Assembly (NCBI GenBank): GCA_022539475.1
Contig: VCMS01000329.1
Span: 1 to 64,000, forward strand
Direction of reading: 5' to 3'
DNA from: Gracilaria domingensis
Lineage: Eukaryota; Rhodophyta; Florideophyceae; Gracilariales; Gracilariaceae
DNA length: 64,000 bases
Shown here: positions 372 through 37,868 of the stretch, piece after piece
Layout of the letters: the number at the start of each line of letters is the position of its first letter
How positions within the stretch are numbered: the stretch's first letter is position 1
Translations under genes and position numbers: made by a program
Notes under the pieces: model-generated
Seen by the model: the letters and a program-made list of their open reading frames with translations, nothing else
Database searches by the model: none
Told to the model about the DNA's origin: nothing

Positions 372-854
372 ATGAGGAAATACATTGGCACCGAACGGCA
401 ACGGATTGTAATGTTACCAGACGCCCGAGGGGTCCAGGATGTACCGGAGTTCCGGGATGCTTCGCCAGAATGTGTGGCGTGGAAGGCTTGCTACGAGAGC
501 CTGTTACGTGGTTTTGGTTTCGGGATGAACATGGTCGATCTTAATTTCCATGACATCCAGTGCATGTCTAAGTATTCCGAGATCAGAGAGGACGCTGGTG
601 ATGTACTTAGTATGCCTAGTTCTGCACAGTGTTCAATTGGTATGGAAGAGGAGTACGTTGGAGTTACGGACGCGTGTGAGTTATACTGCATTGCAGCACG
701 GAATAAGTGCGATGATCTCTTCGAGTCAATGAGGGTCTCACATCAACATGTGTTATGTACTGCGTTGGAAAGGGTTACAATAACTATACAGGGCGGATTC
801 AGGCCCGGACTTTTCAGATACACGCTTCTGGATTCTTGTTTTTCACAGATTTAG
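372..854 (+). CDS. hypothetical ORF spanning the inverted-repeat junction
   Basis: A 160-codon ORF with no recognised domain. It has many cysteines and no obvious signal peptide or membrane segment. Its first 400 nt lie in left-flank sequence and its last ~83 nt lie inside the inverted-repeat arm, which begins at about 772. The last ~26 residues are therefore also encoded on the minus strand near 37,765-37,847, where an upstream stop closes the frame. If the duplication is real, this ORF may be a chance fusion made at the breakpoint. It could also be no gene at all. Confidence 0.25.
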   Translation: MRKYIGTERQRIVMLPDARGVQDVPEFRDASPECVAWKACYESLLRGFGFGMNMVDLNFHDIQCMSKYSEIREDAGDVLSMPSSAQCSIGMEEEYVGVTDACELYCIAARNKCDDLFESMRVSHQHVLCTALERVTITIQGGFRPGLFRYTLLDSCFSQI

Positions 855-1619
855 GATTCAGGATACATTGTCATTTCTACTCTGTTTAATCCATGAATCC
901 ATGACATTTCCAAGTCCCTGAATCCTTTCATTCTACAAGTACCTGAGAACCCTAAACCAAAAGTACCTGAGAACCCTAAACCTAAATCTTCTGAGCATCC
1001 ATTCTCTTTAAACTTCTGGTTTCTCTAAAAGCCCTTCTCTCAGAGTTGCTCTGCCAAGAGCGTCTTTCATCGTATTCCAACGCCCTCTCTAGCAATCCCA
1101 TCGCGCACTGTAGCAAGTGTCATTCATCAGATTCAAGCCTCCCACTATACTCCTGGGTTTTATTAGAAATCTTTCCATCCCTGACGGATTCAGGTATTCA
1201 TGGATTTATGTCATTCATGAGGCTTTCAGATTACATACACACACACACCCACACAGATTAACACAGATTTCGGGTGACACGAAGGGTTTCTGAGAAAACA
1301 ATATTTCTAGAATAGGGTGGGGTATAGTTTCAGAGTTCGTCATATATTCATTGTAGAATTGCTCAGTTTTATTATAAGCATTCTGTTTCTATAAATCTTC
1401 GAGCCATTGCGCCAAGACGTATCAAAGTAATATCCAGCCTATTTTCTTACTCGCCTTCATTCGCATGCAAGCCAATAGCATCAAATTTAGTTGCCACCAC
1501 TGCTGTCAGTGCGCGTCTTAGCTTCTTTCTAAATGGTGTCTGACAGTTCATTATAGAAATTCCCACATTTGTAATATAACTCTTATGTATAAGTTAACTG
1601 CGCATTCTTGTCCTTTCCT
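855..1619. other. non-coding stretch with small repeats
   Basis: No convincing gene. It contains two copies of a 22-mer (aagtacctgagaaccctaaacc) at 937-958 and 961-982, separated by two bases, and a CA-rich microsatellite at about 1,234-1,258. An ORF across the microsatellite looks like chance. The same sequence is mirrored at about 37,000-37,765. Confidence 0.6.
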
Positions 1620-4600
1620 CTCTTAAAACGGACTTTATCGGTGGTGTGTTCTGCTTGTAACACTGCTATTACTCTGCTCCTTACAATCCGGAATTCTGAT
1701 TGCTGCAGTTTCGGAAAGGGCGCTTTGTAGATTCATTGTAGCAATGCCTAGATTTATGATAAATCTCAAACATGTTTGCATCGCAGAGCTTATGGGATAC
1801 GACGAAATAGAGAAAATAATCCTGTACTTCATCGCTGGTGTTTCCTGCATAGAACACTGCTGTTACTCTGCTCTCTAGATTCCGGAATTCCCATTGCTAC
1901 ATTTTCGGTAAGGGCGCTTGATAGATTCATTGTAGCAATGCCCAGATTTATGATAAATCTCAAATATGTTAACAGCGAATTCTTGTCCTTTCCTCTCTTA
2001 AAACGGACTTTATCGGTGGTGTGTTCTGCTTGTAACACTGCTGTTACTCTGCTCCTTACAATCCGGAATTCTGATTGCTGCAGTTTCGGAAAGGGCGCTT
2101 TATAGATTCATTGTAGCAATGCCTAGATTTATGATAAATCTCAAACATGTTTGCATCGCAGAGCTTATGGGATACGACGAAATAGAGAAAATAATCCTGT
2201 ACTTCATCGCTGGTGTTTCCTGCATAGAACACTGCTGTTACTCTGCTCTCTAGATTCCGGAATTCCCATTGCTACATTTTCGGTAAGGGCGCTTGATAGA
2301 TTCATTGTAGCAATGCCCAGATTTATGATAAATCTCAAATATGTTAACAGCGAATTCTTGTCCTTTCCTCTCTTAAAACGGACTTTATCGGTGGTGTGTT
2401 CTGCTTGTAACACTGCTGTTACTCTGCTCTTTACAATCCGGAATTCTGATTGCTGCAGTTTCGGAAAGGGCGCTTTATAGATTCATTGTAGCAATGCCTA
2501 GATTTATGATAAATTTCAAACATGTTTGCATCGCAGAGCCTATGAGGTACGACATAATAAAAACAATAAACACGGACATTATCGGTAGTGTGTCCAGCTT
2601 GGAACACTGCTCTTACTCTGCTCTCTACCTTCCGGAATTCCCATTGCTGCAGTTTCAGGGAGGGGGATTTCCGGATTCATTGTAGCAATGCCCTGATTCA
2701 TGATAAATCTGAAATATGTTTGCATCGCAGAGCTTATGAGGTACGACATAATAAAAACTTTGCATCGCAGAGCTTATAGGATACGACATAATGAAAACAA
2801 TAAACAGGCACTTAATCGGTAGTGTGTCCAGCTTGGAACACTGTCCTTACTCTGCTCCCTACCTTCCGGAATTCCCATTGCTGCAGTTTCGGAAGTGGAT
2901 TTCCGGATTCATTGTAGCAATGCCCTGATTTATGATGAATCTCAAATCTGTTTGAATCGAAGAGCTTATAACATACGAGATGATAAAAACAATGATATAA
3001 ATCTTATGTATATGTTAACAGCGCATTCTTGTCCTTTCCTCTCGTAAAACGGATTTTATCGGTGGTGTGTTCTGCTTGTAACACTGCTGTTACTCTGCTC
3101 TTTACAATCCGGAATTCTGATTGCTGCAGTTTCGGAAAGGGCGCTTTATATATTCATTGTAGCAATGCCTAGATTTATGATAAATCTCAAGTATGTTTGC
3201 ATCGCAGGGCTTATGGAATACGACAAAATAAAAAAAATAATCCCGGACTTTATCAGTGATGTTTCCTGCTTAGAACACTGCTGTTACTCTGCTCTCTAGG
3301 TTCCGGAATTCCCATTGCTACATTTTAGGAAAGGGTGCTTGATAGATTCATTGTAGCAATGCCCAGATTTATGATAAATCTCAAATATGTTTGCATCGCA
3401 GAGCCTATGGGGTACGACATAATAAAAACAATGAACAACGACTTTATCGGTGATGTGTCCTGCTTGAAACACTGCTTTTACTCTGCTTTCTACAGTTCGG
3501 AATTTCTATTGCTGCCGTTGCCGAAAGTGCGCTTGATAGATTCATTGTAGCAATGCCCAGATTTACGATAAATCTCAAATATGTTTGCATCCTAAAGCTT
3601 ATTGGATAAGACATTATAAAAAGAATAAACATCTCAGACCTGTGCGTGCCTTCTTCAGCTTCCGTCTAATCAATATTTTATCTTTTTTCGATCAATGCTT
3701 CAATGGTTCAACCCTTCAACGCTACCTTTTACGTTCCTGATGTACGTTTATCACGCTCTTGGGAAGATCGCTTGATAGACTCATTGTAGCAATGTCCAGA
3801 ATTATGATAAATCTCAAAAATCTTTGCATCGTGGGGCTTGTGGAGTACGACATTTCGAAAAGAATAAACAGTCCAGAGTTGTACGGATTAATGATAAATC
3901 TCCAATATCTTTAGCTCGTGGGGCTTATGAGATACGACATACCAAACCATAAACAGCTCACATCCGTAAGTTCCTTCTTGAGCATCCTTCTAATCAATAT
4001 TGTATCTTTTTTCGATCAGCCCTTCAACTCCGCGTTTTACGTTCCTGAGAAGACGTTGTCATTCTCTCGGGAAAAGCACTTGACAGATTCATTGTAGCGA
4101 TTCCCAGATTTATGATAATTCTCAAATATCTTTGCATCGTGGCTCCGATGGGATACGACATACCCAGATAGTAAATGGCCTTGTCATCTACGTGCCTTCT
4201 TCAGAATGTGTTTAATGAATATTGTATTTTGTTTCGATCATGAGCTTAAATCTTCTTTCTCTGTTCCCGGTTTCACGTTGTCACTCTCTCGAGAAGGGCG
4301 CTTGATAAAGTCATTGTATTAACCCCCAGATTTATGATAACGTTGATGTCTCTTTGTATTGTGAGCTCTCTGTCGTGTTTGGCTCACTCCTTCAGCTCCG
4401 TTCTCTGCCTACCTGACCTCATGTCGTTACTCTTTCCGAAATAGAGCTTGGGAGATTGATTATAGCAAGGCCCAGATTTGTGATAACTTTTGCCTCTCCT
4501 TACATCGTGAGGCTTATGTGATAAGAAATACCCATCCAGTAGACAGACCAGTCTTGTACATGCCTTCTTCAGAAAACTTTTGATCAATATTGTGTCTTGT

Positions 4601-5788
4601 TAGAATCATTGCTTCAACTCTGCTTTCTCCATTTTTGATCTCACGTTACCACACTTTAGGCAAGAGAACTTGAGAGATTTATTGTAGAAATGCCAGAGTT
4701 TATGATACCTCTTACCTATCGTTGCAACGTGAGCCTTTTCAGCCGAGACTTACAAACGTAATGAGCAGCAAACGCTTGGTCTACCCTTCATCAGCATCCG
4801 TTTTATCAATATTCTCTCCTGCTGCGCTTGCTTCAACTCTGCTCTACAAATTCGTGACCTTACGTTGGTACTCTTTCGAGAAGGGCTTTTGATACATTCA
4901 TTGTACTAATGCCCAGAGTTCTGACGCCTCTCACCAATCGTTCCATACTGAGTCTTTGCGTCATAAGCTAACAAAGTAGTAAACAGCGCATTTTTGCACT
5001 TTTTCCTATAAGAACGCACTTTATCGGTAGTTTGTCCTGCTTGGAACAGTGCTATTACTTTGCGTCCTACAATCCGGAATTCACATTGTTGCAGTTTCAG
5101 AAAGAGCGCCTGATAGACTCATTGTAGCAATGCCCGGATTAATGATAAATCTCAAACATCTTTACCTCGTGGGGCTTATAAGATATTACATACAAAATCA
5201 TAAACAGCCCAGATCCGTACGTGTCTTCTTCAGCATCCGTCTAATCATTATTGTGTCTTGTTTCGATCAATTCTTCAACTCTGCTTTTTACGTTCCTGAT
5301 TTAACGTTGTCGGGAAGAGCTCTTGATAGATTCAATGTAGCAATGTTCAAATTTATGATAAACCTCAAACATCTCTGCATCGTGATTCCTACGGGATATG
5401 ACATACCAAACCATAAACAGGCCAGACCTTTACGTGCCTTCTTCAGCATCCGTCTAATCTACATTGTGTCTTTTTCTGATGAGTACTTCAACTCTGCTTT
5501 TTACGTTCCTGATATAATTTCGTCACTCTGTAGGGAAGAGCGCTTGATAGATTCATTACAACAATGCACAGATATATGAGAAATCTCAAATATTCTTTGC
5601 AGCGTGGTTCTAATGGGATGAGACATACCAAAATAATGAATTGTGCGGTCTTGAGCGTGCCTTCTTAAGAATATGTTTAATGAATATTGTATCTTGTTTC
5701 GATCTTGGTGTCAACTCTGCTTTCTTTGTTCCTGACTTTACGTTGTTACTCTCTCGTGAACAGCGCTTGATGAAGTCATTGTATCAAC
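1620..5788. repeat. tandem satellite array, 190-225 bp monomers, left arm
   Basis: A head-to-tail array. Two features recur in most monomers: a CATTG-tag-CAATG dyad (for example 1,734-1,746) and, a few bases on, the odd palindrome AGATTTATgATAAATCT (for example 1,750-1,766). Near the left end monomers are ~190 bp and group into a nearly identical 375 bp dimer (1,733-2,107 and 2,108-2,482). Toward the right they diverge and lengthen to ~220 bp. A longer-range order is visible: the monomer at about 5,648-5,788 best resembles the one at about 4,190-4,340, a period near 1.45 kb. ORFs within the array repeat with the monomers and I do not regard them as genes. The array could be centromeric, subtelomeric or simply heterochromatic. 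Confidence 0.9.
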
Positions 5789-5955
5789 CCCTTGCTGCTA
5801 ACTAGCAAAACGCGAACACAGACGTGGGAAAGCCGTACAAAAGTAACCTCCAAAATTGGGTCCCACTCATACATTGGGAGTGCATCCTCCTATACTCATC
5901 CCTGACTTTATGAGTTGCATCATCCCGATTATCACGCGGTATGCGTTGCTCTACA
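5789..5955 (-). repeat. 3' LTR remnant of element 1
   Basis: It begins TGTAGAGCAACG (reading leftward from 5,955) just after the polypurine tract. The 5' LTR begins TGTGGAGCAACG at 15,267. The two are recognisably homologous but clearly divergent over the following ~100 bp. The remnant stops after GCTAGTTAG, a motif also present inside the 1 kb 5' LTR, and then joins satellite. It is therefore truncated rather than a full short LTR. Confidence 0.7.
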
Positions 5956-5974
5956 TCTCCCCCTCCTTGGAGCC
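5956..5974 (-). other. polypurine tract of element 1
   Basis: On the minus strand the bases just before the 3' LTR are a purine run (aaggagggggaga). In LTR retroelements this is the plus-strand DNA primer and lies against the 5' edge of the 3' LTR, as here. The run agggggag is also seen elsewhere within the coding region, so position rather than sequence makes the call. Confidence 0.65.
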
Positions 5975-6474
5975 GAGAACGACTTCGAGGCAGACGTTTT
6001 GCGCAAACGTGAATAGGTAAATACGTGACGACGATGAGCGGTACCGACTTCACGGTTTCCATACCTCGCAAGCGCGATATGCACTCAGGCAAACAGAGTT
6101 CCCTGACATCAAGACTGGATCACAGTACAGCATCCGATACGATTTCGAAGAACCCGAACCAGTTTCCTCATCACCCACCGGGTCAGGCGAGCGCATCGCA
6201 CCACCCTCACCCGGGTTCTGCGATGGCTCCATTGCCTCAGTCCCAACCGATGGTTCCGGTGAACGTCTCGTTATGGAATTTTGTGCAAGCGATGGCGCTG
6301 ATGGCAAACCAAGTTGGTTGGATATCGAAGGAATCTCTCGCACTACGCGATCCACTCCGCGATGGGTTTGCGTTCAGCCCCGCACCGTGGTTCCATCCGC
6401 TCTTCCGAGCTGCTGACTTCTTTCTTCCAACCGCAAGGCGGGCACGAGTACAATAGAGCACACCGGTAAGCGAG
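5975..6474 (-). other. 3' untranslated region of element 1
   Basis: About 500 bp between the chromodomain stop codon and the polypurine tract. Several ORFs of about 100 codons lie on both strands, but none shows a recognisable domain and they overlap one another. I treat it as 3' UTR or decayed tail. Confidence 0.5.
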
Positions 6475-6855
6475 CTACCCGACCATCGCGTTATCCAATG
6501 TTGGAGGCAATGGCGTCCGAGTACGGCGGTGATACGACATGACCTTGGACCTAGGGAGGTGTTCAATTGGCTCCCAAGTGTCCTCGTCAGGCGGATAGCC
6601 GTACCAACGGATTCTATACAATAGTTTCCCTTCGGGGCTTTCCTTGTGTTCCACGATACGATCTAACACGAATTCTTGTGGGTATACGCCATCTTCGGCT
6701 TCTTCCTTGTCCTTACCCGACATCAGGGAGTGACAATGGGCAAAACCCAGGCGGGGTAGTGGTTCCTTCGGGTTTCGAACCGGTTCTCGGGGCGGAGGAC
6801 GTGTGGTCCGTAGTGTCTTCAGGCCGTCGCGACGAAGTGCGCTAACTCCCGACAC
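6475..6855 (-). CDS. chromodomain ORF of element 1 (left copy)
   Basis: A 126-codon ORF. Residues about 67-116 form a chromodomain: FVLDRIVEHKE, then LLYRIRWYGYPPDEDTWEP, then IEHLPRSKV. The aromatic-cage positions (Y in LLYRIRW, W, W in DTWEP) and the acidic DEDTWEP motif are present. In chromoviruses this domain sits at the integrase C terminus and directs insertion to chromatin marked by histone methylation. Here it is in a different frame from the integrase ORF and separated from it by ~585 nt, so it is either a separate product or a tail detached by frameshifts. The insertion of satellite-embedded elements fits heterochromatin targeting, but that is inference. The mirror copy at 31,764-32,144 has the same protein. 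Confidence 0.85.
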   Translation of the reverse strand: MSGVSALRRDGLKTLRTTRPPPREPVRNPKEPLPRLGFAHCHSLMSGKDKEEAEDGVYPQEFVLDRIVEHKESPEGKLLYRIRWYGYPPDEDTWEPIEHLPRSKVMSYHRRTRTPLPPTLDNAMVG

Positions 6856-7439
6856 CGGCGTCCAATTGCCTCAAAACTGAGCTCAATCGAAAGCTCTCGA
6901 TCTCCGGTTTCCGGCAAACTCTTCTCTATCCCAAACGGGCTACTAATCGACGAACGGTCGCGTCCGTGAAGCGGCAATACCTTCACATTTGTTGCGGGAG
7001 AGCCGTTGTGACGGAGGAGTGGCGTACTGCACTCCCTGCAGAGGGCGGCGGAACGTCGGGCCATGGCGCATGACCTGCGGTGCACTCCATTTTCATTGGA
7101 TATTTGGGCGCACCCGGGCGCGCGTGCGCGCCACAGGTCCCGTGAACGGTATTTACAGTGTCAGGCCCGCCAGCCGGCGGTTGCCAAGCAACGTGCACTA
7201 TCCTCCAGCAATGGCGTATGCTTACAGCAGGTAATCTCGAATCTCTCGCCGTCGGGCTGCACATGCGTACTGGATGTGGTGCCGTTCACCGTGCTTACGG
7301 GTCCAGCACCTCGGCATGTTCCGTGTGCTCCAGCGTGCCCTTCAGGGGTCTTGACTACTTCCTCCTTCAGGCTTTCCAGTATAATCCTCATGGATTCATC
7401 TTTCCTTCCTCCTGCCGCTATGGGCTGTTCCCAGGTGGG
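6856..7439 (-). other. linker between integrase and chromodomain ORFs
   Basis: About 585 bp with overlapping minus-strand ORFs of 76-93 codons in different frames (7,161-7,391, 6,983-7,264, 6,819-7,085). No known domain is seen. The likeliest reading is an integrase C-terminal extension whose frame has been broken by small indels. An extra envelope-like gene is not supported: I see no signal peptide or membrane segment. Confidence 0.45.
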
Positions 7440-9488
7440 CTATGCATCGCTCTCCATGTCGCCTCGTCCCACGAACGGGTCGGCGGAGACAGTGCGTTCG
7501 CGCGAGCGAGATACAGTACGCTCCAACGACTCGGATTGCGTCCCAACGGGGCCACTAGCCTTCTTAGCTGTAGCGCTCCCTGCGGGGGATTCTTCACTTC
7601 TTCCAACTTCATTTCTCGCCAAGGTCTCGGGTGTACGAGACTCAGCGCCAGCGCGATCATTCCCAGCGCGGGATTCTGTCTCACTCTGAGATTCAACACC
7701 TTGGTTAGGTCCAGCGGACGCCGGAGCAACCGGAGCGCGATCTACACTGTCCTCCCCCTCCTTAGGGTGCGATACGGCTTCCGTATTTGGCGCATATACC
7801 GTAGACGGGGGGTGAATCTCATACAACTCGGTAGAGGGTGTAGGTGTAACCCGTGAGAGTCCGGGGTTATCCTTGAGTAACTCTGTTGTACTAGGCAAGT
7901 CGGAGAGACCGCGCTGCGGGTGGGGCAAAACCGAAGGGCGGTTCGCGGTAGCACGCGATTTTTCGGTTTGTTGGTTCGGCGGTGAGCCATTTCCGGTACT
8001 TGTAGTAACTTCCTGGATAGGGCTTGGGGTGCGATACACTCGATCTCGCGATACCCGCTCGTGCTGATTATCGATATCGAGCACGACGGTCGTCTCCTGT
8101 ACGGATACTACCCGACAGGGGCCACTGGCGATCGGAGAGAGCTTATGCCGCTTCTCCTTCTCAGGATTATAGTACTCCTTCCTGAGGAACACGTATTCAC
8201 CAGCCCGCAGCTGCGGTAGTGGCCTGCAAATTTGACTATCGAAATTGCGCTTGTAAGCGAGTTGAGCCTTCTCCATAGAGCGTTTAGCAGTAGGCACCAT
8301 CATGGTTAACCAATTCTTCCACGCATCGCGATGTAACCTCGGTGTCGAGTATTCGTACATAGTTGGCTGTGCCTCAATGGCAAGGGGACGTAGTCTCCTT
8401 GACAGAACCAACTCAAAAGGGGACAAAGACGTAACCCGGTGTACTTGGGTATTATACGCATATGTGATTGCGTCAGTGTACAGATCCCAAGTCTTGGGGT
8501 GTTCCGCAACGTAGGATCTCAATGCACCAAGAATGGTTCGGTTAAATCTCTCTGCTTGACCATTAGTTTGGAGTTGGTACGTTGTTTTAAACGGATTCCT
8601 AATATCCAGGATGCGACACACGTCTTGAAAGAAGTTTGACGTAAACTGAGGGCCGTTGTCGGAGAGTAAATGTACCGGTGGTCCATAGACATAGACCGAG
8701 TGGGTAACAAACGCCTGAGCCACGGCGGCAGCGGTTATCCGCTTAAGCGGCACGGTCCGTGCCAGCTTCGAGAAGCGATCGGTAATCACCAGGAGGTATT
8801 GATTCCCTTGCGAGCTTTTGATCAATTCGCCTAGAATGTCAATGGCGACAGACTCGAGCGGCGCCGTTGCGGGAAACAGCTTTAACTTCTTGGAGTGCTT
8901 CCTCAGTTTGATGTCGTTCTTAGCGCATTCCTGACAGGATCGGCGTACTGCATAACAGTCAAATGCCATTGCCGGCCAGTAAAAATCCCTTCTCAGTGTG
9001 AGATACAACTTTCTTCCTCCCGGGTGGGCTCCCAACTTCACGTAGTGAGAGAGATGAAGAACGCGGCTCTGCAAGGAGTGCGGTACCACTATTTGTGGGT
9101 TTGTTGACACCTTCCTTACTAGGTAGCCTTGATCCTTCACTTGAAACGGTAAGTGATATCCACCGTTCAGACGGGCTCGTACCTGGGTACGGAAGGGATC
9201 TGTCTGCTGTTCCCATATCATCTCCTCGTGCGTGATGGGTATGAATGACCCGGCACCCGGTTCAGCGGTTCTTGTGGCGAGGATGTCGTCACACACGTCA
9301 TCCGACAGGATTTCTATGCTCCCATCGAGGTCACCAACCATAAAACATGGGATATCAGCGTCCTCGGTAGGCTCGGCTTCAGCTGCTGTGCCCAAACGGG
9401 ATAGGGCGTCCGCCTGGAGGTTGAGAGAACCTTTCTTGTACACGACTTCGAAGTCGAATTCCGACAGTCGGAGCCTCCAACGCATCAA
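7440..9488 (-). CDS. RNase H end plus integrase ORF of element 1 (left copy)
   Basis: A 682-codon ORF. Residues 1-40 are the end of the RNase H domain (EFDFEVVYKKGSLNLQADALSR). An HHCC zinc-binding domain follows at about 145-190 (HLSHYVKLGAHPGG, then CQEC). The DDE core runs from about 212 to 320, with the first Asp in VAIDILGEL, the second in LSDNGPQFTS and the Glu in GQAERFNRT. After about residue 450 there is a GPY/F-like module (KLSPIASGPCRVV) and then a long Ser/Glu/Pro-rich tail. The frame is open upstream to 9,635 apart from TAA at 9,510-9,512, so the true upstream product began in RNase H. It differs from the right copy by one visible residue (K versus T after IRNPF). Confidence 0.9.
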   Translation of the reverse strand: MMRWRLRLSEFDFEVVYKKGSLNLQADALSRLGTAAEAEPTEDADIPCFMVGDLDGSIEILSDDVCDDILATRTAEPGAGSFIPITHEEMIWEQQTDPFRTQVRARLNGGYHLPFQVKDQGYLVRKVSTNPQIVVPHSLQSRVLHLSHYVKLGAHPGGRKLYLTLRRDFYWPAMAFDCYAVRRSCQECAKNDIKLRKHSKKLKLFPATAPLESVAIDILGELIKSSQGNQYLLVITDRFSKLARTVPLKRITAAAVAQAFVTHSVYVYGPPVHLLSDNGPQFTSNFFQDVCRILDIRNPFKTTYQLQTNGQAERFNRTILGALRSYVAEHPKTWDLYTDAITYAYNTQVHRVTSLSPFELVLSRRLRPLAIEAQPTMYEYSTPRLHRDAWKNWLTMMVPTAKRSMEKAQLAYKRNFDSQICRPLPQLRAGEYVFLRKEYYNPEKEKRHKLSPIASGPCRVVSVQETTVVLDIDNQHERVSRDRVYRTPSPIQEVTTSTGNGSPPNQQTEKSRATANRPSVLPHPQRGLSDLPSTTELLKDNPGLSRVTPTPSTELYEIHPPSTVYAPNTEAVSHPKEGEDSVDRAPVAPASAGPNQGVESQSETESRAGNDRAGAESRTPETLARNEVGRSEESPAGSATAKKASGPVGTQSESLERTVSRSRERTVSADPFVGRGDMESDA

Positions 9489-9509
9489 ACGTCCCGATGG
9501 TTCGGTGAT

Positions 9510-9966
9510 TTACATGAGCCAACGGAAGCACTTGTGGTTAGTGTGCACCCTAAAGTGAGTTCCCATCAAATATGGTCTGAGAGTGAACAATGCCCAGACC
9601 ACGGCAAGACATTCCTTGTCAGACACCGAGTAATTCATTCCCTTCGTGGACGTTCAGCGATCTCGACCAGTACCCAATAGGCTGTCGTTTCCCGGTCTCG
9701 TCGGTTTGAAACAAAGCACACCCAACCTGATTCGCGCTAGCGTCGGTATCGACTTCATAAGGTAACCCAGGTTTGGAGAGAGCCAAAACTGGCGGCGACG
9801 TTACGGCGTCGACCAATGCGGTAAAAGCGGAGGCCTCTGCACCTCCAAAGGGGTCCAATTCAACAGGTTTTCCTTTCGTAAGGAGCTTATTCAATGGTGA
9901 AGCAATGTCCGCAAAGTTCGGAACGAAACGTCGGTATACGTTACACAGTCCTAAGAAGGATCGCTA
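9510..9966 (-). pseudogene. broken RNase H region of element 1 (left copy)
   Basis: After TAG at 9,964-9,966 the polymerase frame continues: FLGLCNVYRRF, the RNase H motif YEVDTDAS, and QPIGYWSRSLN. It ends at 9,619. The next RNase H motif (NYSVSDKECLAVVW) lies in the +1 frame from 9,635, and that frame meets TAA at 9,510-9,512. Two stops and a frame change thus separate RT from integrase. Comparison with the family suggests the first stop replaced a Leu codon and the second a Gln codon. The right-arm copy has the same lesions (TAG 28,653-28,655; TAA 29,107-29,109). Confidence 0.85.
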
Positions 9967-14098: not shown

Positions 14099-14221
14099 AA
14101 AGGGGATGGGAGAAATCTAATTACAACCCAAAGAAGGGGCTATAACTGTCACTCTCGCGAAAAGGGAATTCCAAGGGTCCAGATTCCAACTAGCACAACA
14201 ACCCGGTTATGGTCCGCTACC

Positions 14222-14240
14222 GTTCTAAGTCGGGAGACCA
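14222..14240 (-). other. candidate primer-binding site of element 1
   Basis: Three bases (ttt) after the end of the 5' LTR (…GCTCTACA), the minus strand reads TGGTCTCCCGACTTAGAAC. Element 2 has TGGTCTCCCCCGACTAGAAC three bases (aaa) after its LTR end. Position, the initial TGG and conservation between the two elements support a tRNA primer site. I cannot match it to a canonical tRNA 3' end, so the primer is unknown. Confidence 0.5.
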
Positions 14241-14243
14241 AAA

Positions 14244-16183: not shown

Positions 16184-16219
16184 GATGGCAGCAGGATGTG
16201 GGAGAGTGGTACTAAGGAT

Positions 16220-17560: not shown

Positions 17561-17569
17561 TGCAGGGTC

Positions 17570-26950: not shown

Positions 26951-27083
26951 AGGTTAGGCAATTAGCTGTCCTAGATACAGGAGCTGCTCCTAACGTAATC
27001 AACAAGAAGTTAATTCCGCCCGCTCTTCGGGAACGATCCGTTTCGGCCCTGCCCTAAACCTCGCCGACGCGAACAATAATTCG

Positions 27084-28655
27084 TTGAGAACGGCTGGTTA
27101 CATTACACTCCTTGTACGAATAGAAACTTGTTTGGTACAACTTAACTTTGTCGTCTGCGACTCATTGTCTGCCCCGATTATCCTCGGTTGTGATTTTTGT
27201 GATCGCTTCGTGGGAGCTATCCGCCCGCGGAAACGCCAAGTGGAAATGGAAGACGGATCAGTCCTGCAGATTGTTCGGAAACCGCTGCGAGCCGCAACCC
27301 GGACACATGTGCCGCTACCAGCTGCGCAGCAAGCCTCCAACGATGGCATGGTGTCGACCAAGCTACACGTCTCGAAGGCAGTGCAGCTGCCACCAGAGTC
27401 CCAGGTATGGATCTATGACACCAACAAACAATGGGGTCTCCACACAGTACAACCGTTGCCGGCTTTATATGAACAACGCCAAATCGCTCTTGCGAATGGA
27501 GTGCTAACTATTCAACCAGATCGACACTTCAAGGTTATGGTCGCCAATTTTGGAAAGTCTACTGAGTGCCTAGTAAAGAACCAAGTGATTGGTACAGTGC
27601 TGCCACACCCGACGGCGGTCGTCCCAACGAAGATACATATCGCAAAGGTTCTCGGAGTGTCAGACCCTAAGGAGGGGGAGGAGAGCACTGAATTGCGAGT
27701 TAGTGAAGCCGTGGACACGGAGGAAACCGAAAAGGACTTGGGTCAGAACAATCCGAAACCTTTGGAGGTTAGTTCTGTGCCACCTGGCAGTGACTTGAAG
27801 GACCCTGTTGAGGAATTGATGAAGCTCGATTTGGAGCATGTACCGGAATCCCATCGGGAGAAGCTTCGCGAGATGCTGCGAGAATTCACTCCCATGTGGG
27901 ACGGAAATCTAGGAGCAATTGGAGTAACTGAGCATTGTATTGACTTGCTTCCGAATACTCGGCCGATTGCGCAACACCCCTATCGGGCCGGACCGAAGGC
28001 TCGGGAGGAAGAGAAGTCTCAAGCTGAGAAGATGTTGAGGGCTGGCGTTATTGAGGCCGCTCAATCCCCTTGGGCGTCACCAGTAGTGTTAGTTCCGAAA
28101 CCGGATGGATCGTGGAGATTTTGTATCGATTACCGAAAGTTGAATGTGGTGACAGTGAAAGATGTATATCAGATACCCCGGTTGGACGAATATATCGATT
28201 CTCTTGGGAGCGCGAACGTGTTCACCACCCTTGACGCCAACTGGGGATATTGGCAGGTTCCCATCAGGGAGAAAGACCGGGATAAGACGGCGTTCGTATG
28301 CCACCAAGGCCTATACCGCTTCCGGAGAATGCCCTTTGGGTTAACTAATGCACCCGCCACTTTTCAGCGTGCGGTTGATATCCTGTTAGCACGATTTAAG
28401 TGGACCACATGTTTGGTGTATCTGGACGATATCGTCGTTTTTTCCAACAATCTGGATGATCATCTAGCCCATGTTCGGGATGTCATGAGAGTACTGCGTG
28501 ATGCAGGCATCACCCTAAAACTCAAGAAGTGCGAGTTCTTCACCGAATCGGTTAAGTATCTGGGTCACATAATCCGTCCCGGAAAACTCTCAGTCGATGA
28601 GGTACGGGTCAAATCCTTGAAAGAGGCTAAGCACCCAAGGACTCAAACAGAGTAG
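27084..28655 (+). CDS. protease-reverse transcriptase ORF of element 1 (right copy)
   Basis: A 523-codon ORF identical in protein to the left copy over its length. It includes protease-proximal IILGCDFCDRF and all RT motifs up to YLDD and VKYLGHIIRPG, ending at the same TAG. It starts later than the left ORF because one-base losses near 26,951 and 27,029 shift the frame across the protease active site (LDTGA is readable upstream in another frame). Confidence 0.88.
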   Translation: MRTAGYITLLVRIETCLVQLNFVVCDSLSAPIILGCDFCDRFVGAIRPRKRQVEMEDGSVLQIVRKPLRAATRTHVPLPAAQQASNDGMVSTKLHVSKAVQLPPESQVWIYDTNKQWGLHTVQPLPALYEQRQIALANGVLTIQPDRHFKVMVANFGKSTECLVKNQVIGTVLPHPTAVVPTKIHIAKVLGVSDPKEGEESTELRVSEAVDTEETEKDLGQNNPKPLEVSSVPPGSDLKDPVEELMKLDLEHVPESHREKLREMLREFTPMWDGNLGAIGVTEHCIDLLPNTRPIAQHPYRAGPKAREEEKSQAEKMLRAGVIEAAQSPWASPVVLVPKPDGSWRFCIDYRKLNVVTVKDVYQIPRLDEYIDSLGSANVFTTLDANWGYWQVPIREKDRDKTAFVCHQGLYRFRRMPFGLTNAPATFQRAVDILLARFKWTTCLVYLDDIVVFSNNLDDHLAHVRDVMRVLRDAGITLKLKKCEFFTESVKYLGHIIRPGKLSVDEVRVKSLKEAKHPRTQTE

Positions 28656-29109
28656 CGATCCTTCTTAGGACTGTGTAACGTATACCGACGTTTCGTTCCG
28701 AACTTTGCGGACATTGCTTCACCATTGAATAAGCTCCTTACGAAAGGAAAACCTGTTGAATTGGACCCCTTTGGAGGTGCAGAGGCCTCCGCTTTTACCG
28801 CATTGGTCGACGCCGTAACGTCGCCGCCAGTTTTGGCTCTCTCCAAACCTGGGTTACCTTATGAAGTCGATACCGACGCTAGCGCGAATCAGGTTGGGTG
28901 TGCTTTGTTTCAAACCGACGAGACCGGGAAACGACAGCCTATTGGGTACTGGTCGAGATCGCTGAACGTCCACGAAGGGAATGAATTACTCGGTGTCTGA
29001 CAAGGAATGTCTTGCCGTGGTCTGGGCATTGTTCACTCTCAGACCATATTTGATGGGAACTCACTTTAGGGTGCACACTAACCACAAGTGCTTCCGTTGG
29101 CTCATGTAA
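28653..29109 (+). pseudogene. broken RNase H region of element 1 (right copy)
   Basis: The same TAG, frame change and TAA as at 9,510-9,966, with the DTDAS motif between (frame open 28,725-29,000). Identical lesions in both copies place the duplication after inactivation. Confidence 0.85.
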
Positions 29110-29130
29110 ATCACCGAACCATCGGGACGT

Positions 29131-31179
29131 TTGATGCGTTGGAGGCTCCGACTGTCGGAATTCGACTTCGAAGTCGTGTACAAGAAAGGTTCTCTCAACC
29201 TCCAGGCGGACGCCCTATCCCGTTTGGGCACAGCAGCTGAAGCCGAGCCTACCGAGGACGCTGATATCCCATGTTTTATGGTTGGTGACCTCGATGGGAG
29301 CATAGAAATCCTGTCGGATGACGTGTGTGACGACATCCTCGCCACAAGAACCGCTGAACCGGGTGCCGGGTCATTCATACCCATCACGCACGAGGAGATG
29401 ATATGGGAACAGCAGACAGATCCCTTCCGTACCCAGGTACGAGCCCGTCTGAACGGTGGATATCACTTACCGTTTCAAGTGAAGGATCAAGGCTACCTAG
29501 TAAGGAAGGTGTCAACAAACCCACAAATAGTGGTACCGCACTCCTTGCAGAGCCGCGTTCTTCATCTCTCTCACTACGTGAAGTTGGGAGCCCACCCGGG
29601 AGGAAGAAAGTTGTATCTCACACTGAGAAGGGATTTTTACTGGCCGGCAATGGCATTTGACTGTTATGCAGTACGCCGATCCTGTCAGGAATGCGCTAAG
29701 AACGACATCAAACTGAGGAAGCACTCCAAGAAGTTAAAGCTGTTTCCCGCAACGGCGCCGCTCGAGTCTGTCGCCATTGACATTCTAGGCGAATTGATCA
29801 AAAGCTCGCAAGGGAATCAATACCTCCTGGTGATTACCGATCGCTTCTCGAAGCTGGCACGGACCGTGCCGCTTAAGCGGATAACCGCTGCCGCCGTGGC
29901 TCAGGCGTTTGTTACCCACTCGGTCTATGTCTATGGACCACCGGTACATTTACTCTCCGACAACGGCCCTCAGTTTACGTCAAACTTCTTTCAAGACGTG
30001 TGTCGCATCCTGGATATTAGGAATCCGTTTACAACAACGTACCAACTCCAAACTAATGGTCAAGCAGAGAGATTTAACCGAACCATTCTTGGTGCATTGA
30101 GATCCTACGTTGCGGAACACCCCAAGACTTGGGATCTGTACACTGACGCAATCACATATGCGTATAATACCCAAGTACACCGGGTTACGTCTTTGTCCCC
30201 TTTTGAGTTGGTTCTGTCAAGGAGACTACGTCCCCTTGCCATTGAGGCACAGCCAACTATGTACGAATACTCGACACCGAGGTTACATCGCGATGCGTGG
30301 AAGAATTGGTTAACCATGATGGTGCCTACTGCTAAACGCTCTATGGAGAAGGCTCAACTCGCTTACAAGCGCAATTTCGATAGTCAAATTTGCAGGCCAC
30401 TACCGCAGCTGCGGGCTGGTGAATACGTGTTCCTCAGGAAGGAGTACTATAATCCTGAGAAGGAGAAGCGGCATAAGCTCTCTCCGATCGCCAGTGGCCC
30501 CTGTCGGGTAGTATCCGTACAGGAGACGACCGTCGTGCTCGATATCGATAATCAGCACGAGCGGGTATCGCGAGATCGAGTGTATCGCACCCCAAGCCCT
30601 ATCCAGGAAGTTACTACAAGTACCGGAAATGGCTCACCGCCGAACCAACAAACCGAAAAATCGCGTGCTACCGCGAACCGCCCTTCGGTTTTGCCCCACC
30701 CGCAGCGCGGTCTCTCCGACTTGCCTAGTACAACAGAGTTACTCAAGGATAACCCCGGACTCTCACGGGTTACACCTACACCCTCTACCGAGTTGTATGA
30801 GATTCACCCCCCGTCTACGGTATATGCGCCAAATACGGAAGCCGTATCGCACCCTAAGGAGGGGGAGGACAGTGTAGATCGCGCTCCGGTTGCTCCGGCG
30901 TCCGCTGGACCTAACCAAGGTGTTGAATCTCAGAGTGAGACAGAATCCCGCGCTGGGAATGATCGCGCTGGCGCTGAGTCTCGTACACCCGAGACCTTGG
31001 CGAGAAATGAAGTTGGAAGAAGTGAAGAATCCCCCGCAGGGAGCGCTACAGCTAAGAAGGCTAGTGGCCCCGTTGGGACGCAATCCGAGTCGTTGGAGCG
31101 TACTGTATCTCGCTCGCGCGAACGCACTGTCTCCGCCGACCCGTTCGTGGGACGAGGCGACATGGAGAGCGATGCATAG
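29131..31179 (+). CDS. RNase H end plus integrase ORF of element 1 (right copy)
   Basis: 682 codons, the mirror of 7,440-9,488. It has the same HHCC and DDE motifs and tail. It has Thr where the left copy has Lys after IRNPF. Thr matches the same motif in element 2 (NLFTTTY), so the left copy carries the derived base. Confidence 0.9.
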   Translation: MMRWRLRLSEFDFEVVYKKGSLNLQADALSRLGTAAEAEPTEDADIPCFMVGDLDGSIEILSDDVCDDILATRTAEPGAGSFIPITHEEMIWEQQTDPFRTQVRARLNGGYHLPFQVKDQGYLVRKVSTNPQIVVPHSLQSRVLHLSHYVKLGAHPGGRKLYLTLRRDFYWPAMAFDCYAVRRSCQECAKNDIKLRKHSKKLKLFPATAPLESVAIDILGELIKSSQGNQYLLVITDRFSKLARTVPLKRITAAAVAQAFVTHSVYVYGPPVHLLSDNGPQFTSNFFQDVCRILDIRNPFTTTYQLQTNGQAERFNRTILGALRSYVAEHPKTWDLYTDAITYAYNTQVHRVTSLSPFELVLSRRLRPLAIEAQPTMYEYSTPRLHRDAWKNWLTMMVPTAKRSMEKAQLAYKRNFDSQICRPLPQLRAGEYVFLRKEYYNPEKEKRHKLSPIASGPCRVVSVQETTVVLDIDNQHERVSRDRVYRTPSPIQEVTTSTGNGSPPNQQTEKSRATANRPSVLPHPQRGLSDLPSTTELLKDNPGLSRVTPTPSTELYEIHPPSTVYAPNTEAVSHPKEGEDSVDRAPVAPASAGPNQGVESQSETESRAGNDRAGAESRTPETLARNEVGRSEESPAGSATAKKASGPVGTQSESLERTVSRSRERTVSADPFVGRGDMESDA

Positions 31180-31763
31180 CCCACCTGGGAACAGCCCATA
31201 GCGGCAGGAGGAAGGAAAGATGAATCCATGAGGATTATACTGGAAAGCCTGAAGGAGGAAGTAGTCAAGACCCCTGAAGGGCACGCTGGAGCACACGGAA
31301 CATGCCGAGGTGCTGGACCCGTAAGCACGGTGAACGGCACCACATCCAGTACGCATGTGCAGCCCGACGGCGAGAGATTCGAGATTACCTGCTGTAAGCA
31401 TACGCCATTGCTGGAGGATAGTGCACGTTGCTTGGCAACCGCCGGCTGGCGGGCCTGACACTGTAAATACCGTTCACGGGACCTGTGGCGCGCACGCGCG
31501 CCCGGGTGCGCCCAAATATCCAATGAAAATGGAGTGCACCGCAGGTCATGCGCCATGGCCCGACGTTCCGCCGCCCTCTGCAGGGAGTGCAGTACGCCAC
31601 TCCTCCGTCACAACGGCTCTCCCGCAACAAATGTGAAGGTATTGCCGCTTCACGGACGCGACCGTTCGTCGATTAGTAGCCCGTTTGGGATAGAGAAGAG
31701 TTTGCCGGAAACCGGAGATCGAGAGCTTTCGATTGAGCTCAGTTTTGAGGCAATTGGACGCCG

Positions 31764-32144
31764 GTGTCGGGAGTTAGCGCACTTCGTCGCGACGGCCTGA
31801 AGACACTACGGACCACACGTCCTCCGCCCCGAGAACCGGTTCGAAACCCGAAGGAACCACTACCCCGCCTGGGTTTTGCCCATTGTCACTCCCTGATGTC
31901 GGGTAAGGACAAGGAAGAAGCCGAAGATGGCGTATACCCACAAGAATTCGTGTTAGATCGTATCGTGGAACACAAGGAAAGCCCCGAAGGGAAACTATTG
32001 TATAGAATCCGTTGGTACGGCTATCCGCCTGACGAGGACACTTGGGAGCCAATTGAACACCTCCCTAGGTCCAAGGTCATGTCGTATCACCGCCGTACTC
32101 GGACGCCATTGCCTCCAACATTGGATAACGCGATGGTCGGGTAG
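31764..32144 (+). CDS. chromodomain ORF of element 1 (right copy)
   Basis: A 126-codon mirror of 6,475-6,855 with an identical protein, including LLYRIRWYGYPPDEDTWEP. Comments on the left copy apply. Confidence 0.85.
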   Translation: MSGVSALRRDGLKTLRTTRPPPREPVRNPKEPLPRLGFAHCHSLMSGKDKEEAEDGVYPQEFVLDRIVEHKESPEGKLLYRIRWYGYPPDEDTWEPIEHLPRSKVMSYHRRTRTPLPPTLDNAMVG

Positions 32145-32663
32145 CTCGCTTACCGGTGTGCTCTATTGTACTCGTGCCCGCCTTGCGGTTGGAAGAAAGA
32201 AGTCAGCAGCTCGGAAGAGCGGATGGAACCACGGTGCGGGGCTGAACGCAAACCCATCGCGGAGTGGATCGCGTAGTGCGAGAGATTCCTTCGATATCCA
32301 ACCAACTTGGTTTGCCATCAGCGCCATCGCTTGCACAAAATTCCATAACGAGACGTTCACCGGAACCATCGGTTGGGACTGAGGCAATGGAGCCATCGCA
32401 GAACCCGGGTGAGGGTGGTGCGATGCGCTCGCCTGACCCGGTGGGTGATGAGGAAACTGGTTCGGGTTCTTCGAAATCGTATCGGATGCTGTACTGTGAT
32501 CCAGTCTTGATGTCAGGGAACTCTGTTTGCCTGAGTGCATATCGCGCTTGCGAGGTATGGAAACCGTGAAGTCGGTACCGCTCATCGTCGTCACGTATTT
32601 ACCTATTCACGTTTGCGCAAAACGTCTGCCTCGAAGTCGTTCTCGGCTCCAAGGAGGGGGAGA

Positions 32664-32830
32664 TGTAGAGCAACGCATACCGCGTGATAATCGGGATGAT
32701 GCAACTCATAAAGTCAGGGATGAGTATAGGAGGATGCACTCCCAATGTATGAGTGGGACCCAATTTTGGAGGTTACTTTTGTACGGCTTTCCCACGTCTG
32801 TGTTCGCGTTTTGCTAGTTAGCAGCAAGGG
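32664..32830 (+). repeat. 3' LTR remnant of element 1 (right copy)
   Basis: TGTAGAGCAACG directly follows the polypurine tract aaggagggggaga (32,645-32,663). It ends at the same satellite junction as in the left arm. Confidence 0.7.
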
Positions 32831-35800
32831 GTTGATACAATGACTTCATCAAGCGCTGTTCACGAGAGAGTAACAACGTAAAGTCAGGAACAAAGAAAGC
32901 AGAGTTGACACCAAGATCGAAACAAGATACAATATTCATTAAACATATTCTTAAGAAGGCACGCTCAAGACCGCACAATTCATTATTTTGGTATGTCTCA
33001 TCCCATTAGAACCACGCTGCAAAGAATATTTGAGATTTCTCATATATCTGTGCATTGTTGTAATGAATCTATCAAGCGCTCTTCCCTACAGAGTGACGAA
33101 ATTATATCAGGAACGTAAAAAGCAGAGTTGAAGTACTCATCAGAAAAAGACACAATGTAGATTAGACGGATGCTGAAGAAGGCACGTAAAGGTCTGGCCT
33201 GTTTATGGTTTGGTATGTCATATCCCGTAGGAATCACGATGCAGAGATGTTTGAGGTTTATCATAAATTTGAACATTGCTACATTGAATCTATCAAGAGC
33301 TCTTCCCGACAACGTTAAATCAGGAACGTAAAAAGCAGAGTTGAAGAATTGATCGAAACAAGACACAATAATGATTAGACGGATGCTGAAGAAGACACGT
33401 ACGGATCTGGGCTGTTTATGATTTTGTATGTAATATCTTATAAGCCCCACGAGGTAAAGATGTTTGAGATTTATCATTAATCCGGGCATTGCTACAATGA
33501 GTCTATCAGGCGCTCTTTCTGAAACTGCAACAATGTGAATTCCGGATTGTAGGACGCAAAGTAATAGCACTGTTCCAAGCAGGACAAACTACCGATAAAG
33601 TGCGTTCTTATAGGAAAAAGTGCAAAAATGCGCTGTTTACTACTTTGTTAGCTTATGACGCAAAGACTCAGTATGGAACGATTGGTGAGAGGCGTCAGAA
33701 CTCTGGGCATTAGTACAATGAATGTATCAAAAGCCCTTCTCGAAAGAGTACCAACGTAAGGTCACGAATTTGTAGAGCAGAGTTGAAGCAAGCGCAGCAG
33801 GAGAGAATATTGATAAAACGGATGCTGATGAAGGGTAGACCAAGCGTTTGCTGCTCATTACGTTTGTAAGTCTCGGCTGAAAAGGCTCACGTTGCAACGA
33901 TAGGTAAGAGGTATCATAAACTCTGGCATTTCTACAATAAATCTCTCAAGTTCTCTTGCCTAAAGTGTGGTAACGTGAGATCAAAAATGGAGAAAGCAGA
34001 GTTGAAGCAATGATTCTAACAAGACACAATATTGATCAAAAGTTTTCTGAAGAAGGCATGTACAAGACTGGTCTGTCTACTGGATGGGTATTTCTTATCA
34101 CATAAGCCTCACGATGTAAGGAGAGGCAAAAGTTATCACAAATCTGGGCCTTGCTATAATCAATCTCCCAAGCTCTATTTCGGAAAGAGTAACGACATGA
34201 GGTCAGGTAGGCAGAGAACGGAGCTGAAGGAGTGAGCCAAACACGACAGAGAGCTCACAATACAAAGAGACATCAACGTTATCATAAATCTGGGGGTTAA
34301 TACAATGACTTTATCAAGCGCCCTTCTCGAGAGAGTGACAACGTGAAACCGGGAACAGAGAAAGAAGATTTAAGCTCATGATCGAAACAAAATACAATAT
34401 TCATTAAACACATTCTGAAGAAGGCACGTAGATGACAAGGCCATTTACTATCTGGGTATGTCGTATCCCATCGGAGCCACGATGCAAAGATATTTGAGAA
34501 TTATCATAAATCTGGGAATCGCTACAATGAATCTGTCAAGTGCTTTTCCCGAGAGAATGACAACGTCTTCTCAGGAACGTAAAACGCGGAGTTGAAGGGC
34601 TGATCGAAAAAAGATACAATATTGATTAGAAGGATGCTCAAGAAGGAACTTACGGATGTGAGCTGTTTATGGTTTGGTATGTCGTATCTCATAAGCCCCA
34701 CGAGCTAAAGATATTGGAGATTTATCATTAATCCGTACAACTCTGGACTGTTTATTCTTTTCGAAATGTCGTACTCCACAAGCCCCACGATGCAAAGATT
34801 TTTGAGATTTATCATAATTCTGGACATTGCTACAATGAGTCTATCAAGCGATCTTCCCAAGAGCGTGATAAACGTACATCAGGAACGTAAAAGGTAGCGT
34901 TGAAGGGTTGAACCATTGAAGCATTGATCGAAAAAAGATAAAATATTGATTAGACGGAAGCTGAAGAAGGCACGCACAGGTCTGAGATGTTTATTCTTTT
35001 TATAATGTCTTATCCAATAAGCTTTAGGATGCAAACATATTTGAGATTTATCGTAAATCTGGGCATTGCTACAATGAATCTATCAAGCGCACTTTCGGCA
35101 ACGGCAGCAATAGAAATTCCGAACTGTAGAAAGCAGAGTAAAAGCAGTGTTTCAAGCAGGACACATCACCGATAAAGTCGTTGTTCATTGTTTTTATTAT
35201 GTCGTACCCCATAGGCTCTGCGATGCAAACATATTTGAGATTTATCATAAATCTGGGCATTGCTACAATGAATCTATCAAGCACCCTTTCCTAAAATGTA
35301 GCAATGGGAATTCCGGAACCTAGAGAGCAGAGTAACAGCAGTGTTCTAAGCAGGAAACATCACTGATAAAGTCCGGGATTATTTTTTTTATTTTGTCGTA
35401 TTCCATAAGCCCTGCGATGCAAACATACTTGAGATTTATCATAAATCTAGGCATTGCTACAATGAATATATAAAGCGCCCTTTCCGAAACTGCAGCAATC
35501 AGAATTCCGGATTGTAAAGAGCAGAGTAACAGCAGTGTTACAAGCAGAACACACCACCGATAAAATCCGTTTTACGAGAGGAAAGGACAAGAATGCGCTG
35601 TTAACATATACATAAGATTTATATCATTGTTTTTATCATCTCGTATGTTATAAGCTCTTCGATTCAAACAGATTTGAGATTCATCATAAATCAGGGCATT
35701 GCTACAATGAATCCGGAAATCCACTTCCGAAACTGCAGCAATGGGAATTCCGGAAGGTAGGGAGCAGAGTAAGGACAGTGTTCCAAGCTGGACACACTAC

Positions 35801-36999
35801 CGATTAAGTGCCTGTTTATTGTTTTCATTATGTCGTATCCTATAAGCTCTGCGATGCAAAGTTTTTATTATGTCGTACCTCATAAGCTCTGCGATGCAAA
35901 CATATTTCAGATTTATCATGAATCAGGGCATTGCTACAATGAATCCGGAAATCCCCCTACCTGAAACTGCAGCAATGGGAATTCCGGAAGGTAGAGAGCA
36001 GAGTAAGAGCAGTGTTCCAAGCTGGACACACTACCGATAATGTCCGTGTTTATTGTTTTTATTATGTCGTACCTCATAGGCTCTGCGATGCAAACATGTT
36101 TGAAATTTATCATAAATCTAGGCATTGCTACAATGAATCTATAAAGCGCCCTTTCCGAAACTGCAACAATCAGAATTCCGGATTGTAAAGAGCAGAGTAA
36201 CAGCAGTGTTACAAGCAGAACACACCACCGATAAAGTCCGTTTTAAGAGAGGAAAGGACAAGAATTCGCTGTTAACATATTTGAGATTTATCATAAATCT
36301 GGGCATTGCTACAATGAATCTATCAAGCGCCCTTACCGAAAATGTAGCAATGGGAATTCCGGAATCTAGAGAGCAGAGTAACAGCAGTGTTCTATGCAGG
36401 AAACACCAGCGATGAAGTACAGGATTATTTTCTCTATTTCGTCGTATCCCATAAGCTCTGCGATGCAAACATGTTTGAGATTTATCATAAATCTAGGCAT
36501 TGCTACAATGAATCTATAAAGCGCCCTTTCCGAAACTGCAGCAATCAGAATTCCGGATTGTAAGGAGCAGAGTAACAGCAGTGTTACAAGCAGAACACAC
36601 CACCGATAAAGTCCGTTTTAAGAGAGGAAAGGACAAGAATTCGCTGTTAACATATTTGAGATTTATCATAAATCTGGGCATTGCTACAATGAATCTATCA
36701 AGCGCCCTTACCGAAAATGTAGCAATGGGAATTCCGGAATCTAGAGAGCAGAGTAACAGCAGTGTTCTATGCAGGAAACACCAGCGATGAAGTACAGGAT
36801 TATTTTCTCTATTTCGTCGTATCCCATAAGCTCTGCGATGCAAACATGTTTGAGATTTATCATAAATCTAGGCATTGCTACAATGAATCTACAAAGCGCC
36901 CTTTCCGAAACTGCAGCAATCAGAATTCCGGATTGTAAGGAGCAGAGTAATAGCAGTGTTACAAGCAGAACACACCACCGATAAAGTCCGTTTTAAGAG
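32831..36999. repeat. satellite array, right arm
   Basis: The mirror of 1,620-5,788, with the same 375 bp dimer and dyads in inverted orientation. Two base differences from the left array were seen by eye (36,166 and ~35,961). Confidence 0.9.
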
Positions 37000-37868
37000 A
37001 GGAAAGGACAAGAATGCGCAGTTAACTTATACATAAGAGTTATATTACAAATGTGGGAATTTCTATAATGAACTGTCAGACACCATTTAGAAAGAAGCTA
37101 AGACGCGCACTGACAGCAGTGGTGGCAACTAAATTTGATGCTATTGGCTTGCATGCGAATGAAGGCGAGTAAGAAAATAGGCTGGATATTACTTTGATAC
37201 GTCTTGGCGCAATGGCTCGAAGATTTATAGAAACAGAATGCTTATAATAAAACTGAGCAATTCTACAATGAATATATGACGAACTCTGAAACTATACCCC
37301 ACCCTATTCTAGAAATATTGTTTTCTCAGAAACCCTTCGTGTCACCCGAAATCTGTGTTAATCTGTGTGGGTGTGTGTGTGTATGTAATCTGAAAGCCTC
37401 ATGAATGACATAAATCCATGAATACCTGAATCCGTCAGGGATGGAAAGATTTCTAATAAAACCCAGGAGTATAGTGGGAGGCTTGAATCTGATGAATGAC
37501 ACTTGCTACAGTGCGCGATGGGATTGCTAGAGAGGGCGTTGGAATACGATGAAAGACGCTCTTGGCAGAGCAACTCTGAGAGAAGGGCTTTTAGAGAAAC
37601 CAGAAGTTTAAAGAGAATGGATGCTCAGAAGATTTAGGTTTAGGGTTCTCAGGTACTTTTGGTTTAGGGTTCTCAGGTACTTGTAGAATGAAAGGATTCA
37701 GGGACTTGGAAATGTCATGGATTCATGGATTAAACAGAGTAGAAATGACAATGTATCCTGAATCCTAAATCTGTGAAAAACAAGAATCCAGAAGCGTGTA
37801 TCTGAAAAGTCCGGGCCTGAATCCGCCCTGTATAGTTATTGTAACCCCATGTCAGGTTCAGATCGGTG

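What the first reader, a model, noticed from the sequence alone, without database searches (positions are those of the whole stretch)
772..37847. Inverted duplication of about 15 kb arms, with outer 11 kb almost identical
All paired features in the outer arms have coordinates summing to 38,619, with only three substitutions seen by eye. If real, this is a very recent inverted duplication, or a palindrome kept alike by gene conversion, embedding satellite and two nested retroelements. If not, it is a fold-back misassembly or chimeric scaffold, supported by the N gap and the error-rich inner right arm.
Basis: partly seen in the sequence, partly recalled or inferred. Interest (0 to 1): 0.75.

Follow-up and report, generated by a model that had tools for sequence, protein, structure and literature searches.

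The report
Fold-back scaffold join of repeat copies
The apparent giant palindrome is most likely two separate copies of one repeated stretch of a (probably red-algal) genome, set head to head across a gap by the assembly software, so it should not be read as a recent inverted duplication.

Summary
The sequence observation is right. Window 772-12930 matches 37847-25691 inverted at 99.8%; 772-11587 differs by three substitutions; the inner arms, to 15757/22492, fall to 81-92% with indel-rich errors. The reading as an inverted duplication is not supported. The palindrome exists only across an 822-N gap. The left piece (1-21669) is covered by two other contigs, C275 (window 1-14388) and C181 (6177-21669), and C181 runs on past the gap point without folding back. 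The arm is a dispersed block: its first nucleotide (772) is joined to three unlike flanks: that of C275 (= window 1-771), the window's right flank, and that of C382. C382 shows a like pattern: flank C lies twice, inverted, around an N gap, and its left contig ends in a telomere-like array facing that gap. The 3 arrays examined all face N gaps inside scaffolds. Best reading: an unresolved block of at least 14 kb at three places, two copies falsely joined head to head. Real and unexplained: the shared exact end. No reads were available. The host is probably a red alga (inference).

The parts
1..771 (.). Flank A, left edge of the scaffold; duplicate of C275:58867-59635
   Evidence: Same sequence but two bases shorter in C275; 2 places found in the genome, this one and C275; colinear with C275 to window 14388
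772..15757 (+). Left arm: copy of the dispersed block, the part also found inverted at 22492-37847
1589..5792 (.). Satellite array, monomers of about 194 bp (also 181- and 213-bp spacings), inside the block
5648..5792 (+). 145-bp direct repeat, left copy, flanking the retroelement-derived insert
   Evidence: matches 19766-19910 at 95.9%, and the cleaner C181 copy at 97.2%
5793..19765 (-). Retroelement-derived insert splitting the satellite: integrase 7443-9509, RNase H 9622-9963, reverse transcriptase 9967-12063 (Ty3-like order, recalled), and a second, deleted relative (15224-15946 holds an integrase piece and a sub-threshold reverse transcriptase piece in one frame)
   Evidence: Pfam PF00665, PF17921, PF17919, PF00078
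15758..21669 (+). Inner part of the left contig, absent from the right contig; continues in C181
   Evidence: C181:1-15509 = window 6177-21669, no difference before 18 kb
19766..19910 (+). 145-bp direct repeat, right copy; the satellite resumes here
21670..22491 (.). N gap: the scaffold join that creates the palindrome
22492..25690 (-). Error-rich inner end of the right contig (looks like unpolished long-read sequence)
22492..37847 (-). Right arm: copy of the block attached to flank B
37848..64000 (.). Flank B, with genes and transposon pieces; of 37848-39400, the first 762 bp were found again only in the raw-quality contig C504
   Evidence: 2 places

Best explanation
The 15-kb inverted arms are two copies of one dispersed block (at least 14 kb) that sit in different places of what is probably a red-alga genome. 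Long reads did not span the block, so each contig ran from its own flank into the block and stopped in poor-quality sequence. The scaffolder then joined the inner ends of two such contigs head to head across 822 N, making a false palindrome. SHOWN on the assembled sequence: three unlike flanks meet the block at one nucleotide; the left contig is covered by C275 and C181; errors pile up at contig ends inside the block; a like head-to-head pattern stands in C382. INFERRED: that the window's join itself is false, that reads were too short, and what misled the scaffolder (for example fold-back long reads). The near-identity of the copies may be partly due to polishing with reads from all copies.
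For: (1) The palindrome exists only across the N gap. The stretches held of C275 (50001-73261), C181 (1-30000) and C504 (whole) have no inverted arm and no self-inverted match over 300 bp; C382 holds one block copy, on its other strand. (2) The left contig = C275:58867-73261 (window 1-14388) and C181:1-15509 (window 6177-21669); C181 goes on without an N run to 30,000, as far as fetched. (3) The first 729 bp of the block were found in 5 places: both arms, C275, C382, C504. The three flanks, 9.6-11.6 kb each, share no BLAST match at E 1e-5. (4) C504 carries flank B and runs through the block in direct order to C181:16172, past the point where the window has its gap. (5) Errors at contig ends: C275 beyond 14 kb, C382 beyond 11 kb, left contig at 19-21.7 kb, right contig from 11.6 kb inward. 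(6) C382 holds flank C twice, inverted around an N gap: 60001-63112 = 91495-88384, 99.9%, and on to 51501/99775. Its left contig ends in 19 telomere-like units facing the gap. In C2 and C9 such arrays also face N inside scaffolds: 3 of 3 examined.
Against: C504 is not one clean read: its error type changes near 4.5-5.5 kb and near 11.5 kb, so it may be stitched inside the block. At window 2453 it carries the base of the left contig, not that of the right contig, though it bears the right contig's flank; 2660 and 8587 do not decide. Only one inner neighbour (C181) was found for three outer flanks (which scored 40 of 497 candidates); a real A-B palindrome plus a C-C181 link would also fit that count. 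The scaffolder placed the join on evidence that I cannot see. Flank C's two forms differ by 13 mismatches in about 8.9 kb and a 220-bp indel, so C382 may hold two real alleles or paralogues. What lies beyond the gaps in C2 and C9 was not looked at; internal telomere-like arrays in real chromosomes are not excluded.
Confidence: 0.85

Rival explanations
1. A real, very recent inverted duplication (palindrome) joins flanks A and B, with a 5.9-kb asymmetric spacer and a gap; flank C then leads to C181.
For: 3 substitutions in 10.8 kb of outer arm; the scaffolder placed both arms together; the counts of outer and inner neighbours would balance.
Against: None of the contigs found spans it. The left contig's inner part runs on in C181, not into an inverted arm. 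C504 takes flank B straight into the inner part, though it may be stitched. The block is also at a third site. C382 shows a like inverted pattern beyond a telomere-like end.
Confidence: 0.1
2. Both are real: some nuclei or one haplotype carry the palindrome, others carry the single block.
For: Flank C is present in two forms, with and without the block, so structural variation within the sample is possible.
Against: No empty form of flank A or B was found; the 822-N gap is the only link.
Confidence: 0.05

Closest known systems
Fold-back artefacts of long reads and palindromic chimeras (PMC12870357, passages read; PMC6218980 and PMC13141652, listing and abstract starts only)
   Same: Sequence followed by its own inverse, able to tangle assemblies and give false inverted calls
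   Different: Here the fold is at scaffold level across N. PMC12870357 saw no systematic fold-backs in its three PacBio samples, so the trigger is not established
Subtelomeric segmental duplications (general knowledge, recalled)
   Same: Near-identical repeat-rich blocks next to unlike chromosome-specific flanks; flank C is 10.15 kb from a telomere-like array in its plain form
   Different: All three junctions fall on the same block nucleotide, which breakage and copying at random points would not give
Giant transposable elements (PMC6431247, listing and abstract start only)
   Same: A fixed end joined to unlike flanks
   Different: No inverted copy of the first 20 bp (up to 5 substitutions) in the left contig or in C181 to 30,000; no other end or target duplication seen

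Membership tests
Real inverted duplication / palindrome | Two arms in inverted order | tested here: met
   In the scaffold only
Real inverted duplication / palindrome | Contiguous sequence through the centre | tested here: not met
   822 N; the stretches held of C275, C181 and C504 show no inverted arm
Real inverted duplication / palindrome | Reads crossing the centre and both outer junctions | not testable with these tools
   No reads held
False head-to-head scaffold join | A joined contig is redundant with other contigs | tested here: met
   Left contig = C275 + C181
False head-to-head scaffold join | Low-quality sequence at the joined ends | tested here: met
False head-to-head scaffold join | Same kind of error elsewhere in the assembly | tested here: inconclusive
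   C382 has flank C inverted around a gap; arrays in C382, C2, C9 face gaps, 3 of 3 examined. Strongly suggestive, but real alleles, paralogues or internal arrays are not excluded
Terminal-inverted-repeat transposon | Inverted copy of the end at the far side | tested here: not met
   None in the left contig or C181:1-30000 at up to 5 substitutions; one direct-orientation match with 5 substitutions at window 20279. Genome-wide at up to 3 mismatches there were 5 places, 4 of them known block ends, the fifth in C360 without block-like sequence beside it. An end farther away is not excluded
Terminal-inverted-repeat transposon | Target-site duplication | not testable with these tools
   Far end not identified

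The most novel reading that the evidence does not exclude
The block is a mobile unit of a red alga, at least 14 kb and perhaps over 21 kb, that carries its own satellite array and dead retroelements. It has been added at three unlike sites with the same exact end (GGGTTACAATAAC...), at least once within about 10 kb of a chromosome end, by a mechanism that is neither an ordinary terminal-inverted-repeat nor an LTR insertion.
Probability: 0.28. Interest if true: 0.55.

Novelty: not a real feature. Interest (0 to 1): 0.2.

Why it matters
It removes a probably false palindrome and the gene-conversion story that would follow from it, and it warns that N-gap joins in this assembly need checking, even past telomere-like ends. 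It also isolates a real puzzle: one near-identical block with one exact end at three unlike sites.

Tried and rejected
Canonical telomere repeats: no run of three TTAGGG, TTTAGGG or TTAGGC in the genome, so an early idea that the block end GGGTTA is telomeric was dropped. The control (127 and 86 against 128 and 87) says nothing, because the repeat read backwards is the same repeat.

Dating the arms by their three substitutions was rejected: C504, which bears flank B, has the left contig's base at 2453 and does not decide at 2660 and 8587, and polishing may have made the copies alike.

Using C504 as a single spanning read was rejected after its error profile proved mixed.

A terminal inverted repeat partner was sought and not found. 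The weak hit in C360 has no block-like sequence beside it; by my own arithmetic about 0.4 such hits are due to chance. Five contig ends, 1 kb each (C181 last, C275 first, C382 first and last, C329 last), carry no telomere-like array. Rfam (gathering threshold) and tRNA scans of the window were empty. The paper searches gave nothing on such blocks in red algae that I could recognise (8 of 358 listed).

Full report
Observation. The inverted arms are in the sequence as described. The outer arms (772-12930 vs 37847-25691) are 99.8% alike; 772-11587 shows three substitutions and no indel; the inner arms reach 15757/22492 at 81-92%, depending on the stretch and the scoring. The differences of the inner right arm are indel-rich and uneven, as in unpolished long-read sequence. 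They begin with one-base indels at 11.6 kb, jump at 12.75 kb and last to the contig end at the gap, without rising steadily.

Source. The window is the first 64 kb of contig C329 (107,784 bp) in a 77.9-Mb, 680-contig genome. I read C680 as a plastid genome of red-algal size (size recalled); I did not test it further, whose rows name no organisms, neither helps nor hurts. I infer a red alga, probably that species; it was not confirmed.

The arm is a dispersed block. Window 1-771 was found once more, in C275, two bases shorter; C275 then follows the window to 14388 and ends there. C181 begins at window 6177, follows it to 21669 and runs on, with no N run in the 30 kb fetched. C382 carries window 772-11645 after an N gap. 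C504, of raw-read quality, carries flank B and the block through to C181:16172. The first 729 bp of the block were found in 5 places. Flanks A, B and C are unlike each other over the 9.6-11.6 kb compared and all end at the same block nucleotide. Away from contig ends the left contig differs from C275 by 0 substitutions and 2 indel columns (772-14000), from C382 by 1 and 1 (772-11000), from C181 by 0 and 0 (6177-18000), and from the right arm by 3 and 0 (772-11580).

Why the join is probably false. The left contig duplicates C275 plus C181, which together already give a straight path. Its inner part continues in C181, not in an inverted arm; no inverted arm is present in the stretches of C275, C181 or C504 held. 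The right contig stops at the equivalent of window 15757, 5.9 kb short of the left contig's end, and C504 takes flank B straight through that point. C504 is mixed in error type and may be stitched inside the block, so this is support and not proof.

Precedent in the same assembly. Scaffold C382 carries flank C twice, inverted around an N gap at 73261-77499: 60001-63112 equals 91495-88384 with 3 mismatches of 3,112, and the match goes on to 51501/99775 with 10 further mismatches in 5.8 kb and a 220-bp indel. The one stretch tested farther out (36001-37100 against 114446-115445) did not match. The left contig ends in 19 units of AGGGGATT(T), G-rich strand toward the gap, as at a chromosome end. 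The same repeat stands against N inside C2 (643 kb) and C9 (500 kb), in both cases with the G-rich strand toward the gap (C9:72631-72899 was not seen). So 3 of 3 arrays examined face scaffold gaps. One search counts 215 overlapping pattern places and lists only the first, all in C2 and C9; other arrays were not looked at, nor was what lies beyond the gaps in C2 and C9.

What the block holds. A satellite of about 194-bp monomers (1589-5792) is split by a retroelement-derived insert (5793-19765, coding on the minus strand: integrase, RNase H and reverse transcriptase, and a second deleted relative) and resumes at 19766. The insert is bounded by a 145-bp direct repeat (97.2% against the cleaner C181 copy), far longer than an ordinary LTR-element target duplication (recalled). 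Beyond the window, C181:17734-28406 looks like an LTR element with about 1.78-kb terminal repeats 99% alike; its inside matches nine further places at 89-91% (9 of 531 candidates scored).

What stays open. One exact block end at three unlike flanks is real on the assembled sequence, and for flank B it also appears in the raw-quality C504. It looks more like an insertion end than like random breakage. The far end was not found, the only inner neighbour seen is C181, and there is no terminal inverted repeat in reach. A mobile unit, or a subtelomeric block spread by a recurrent break, both remain possible. Whether flanks A and B are near chromosome ends is not known; flank A shares one 868-bp stretch at 80% with the plain end of C382 (C275:51845-52707, C382:65121-64260). 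The trigger of the false joins is unknown: fold-back reads are known artefacts, but PMC12870357 (passages read) reports none of note in three PacBio samples.

Literature. On telomeres, PMC7046594 (passages read) names candidates for Cyanidioschyzon, Galdieria and Porphyra among red algae; the main text of PMC10767889 (passages read) does not hold TTAGGGGA. My searches for the motif (listings only, 8 of 8 and 10 of 127 listed) showed no paper that I could recognise as describing it in red algae. This is not a proof of absence in print.

Noticed in passing
C382:73100-73260 (L032), C9:71870-72940 (L057, L059; 72631-72899 not seen), C2:597699-598640 (L058 for its first bases): Telomere-like arrays that mix GGGGATTA and GGGGATTTA units about 1:1 (28:28 in C9:72130-72630; 9:9 in C382:73090-73260), with no canonical TTAGGG, TTTAGGG or TTAGGC run of three in the genome: a candidate telomere repeat of this, probably red-algal, genome.
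   Followed up: partly
window 5648-5792 and 19766-19910: 145-bp direct repeat on both sides of a 14-kb retroelement-derived insert that begins (C)TG and ends CA, far longer than a usual target duplication.
   Followed up: partly
C382:51501-63112 and 88384-99775 (L031, L056, L033, L034): Flank C exists in two forms, about 0.15% different with a 220-bp indel: one leads after 10.15 kb to a telomere-like array, the other into the block. An allele pair or a paralogous chromosome end.
   Followed up: partly
C382:65422-71175 minus strand (L031, L032): A frame of 1,918 codons without a stop near the telomere-like array; 1,526 codons of it, scanned, match no Pfam family at E 0.01.
   Followed up: partly
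C275:51845-52707 and C382:64260-65121: An 868-bp stretch, 80% alike, shared by flank A and the telomere-side end of C382; in C382 it overlaps a frame with 36-bp proline-rich tandem repeats.
   Followed up: no
C231:117878-120718: Diverged relative (86-90%) of the block's inner part, window 20418-21010 with C181:15544-17733.
   Followed up: no
window 54759-57548: Frames with EF3/GCN1-type HEAT repeats in flank B, perhaps one GCN1-like gene in pieces.
   Followed up: no
window 41579-41810 and 44670-44901: A 232-bp direct repeat, 95% alike, in flank B.
   Followed up: no
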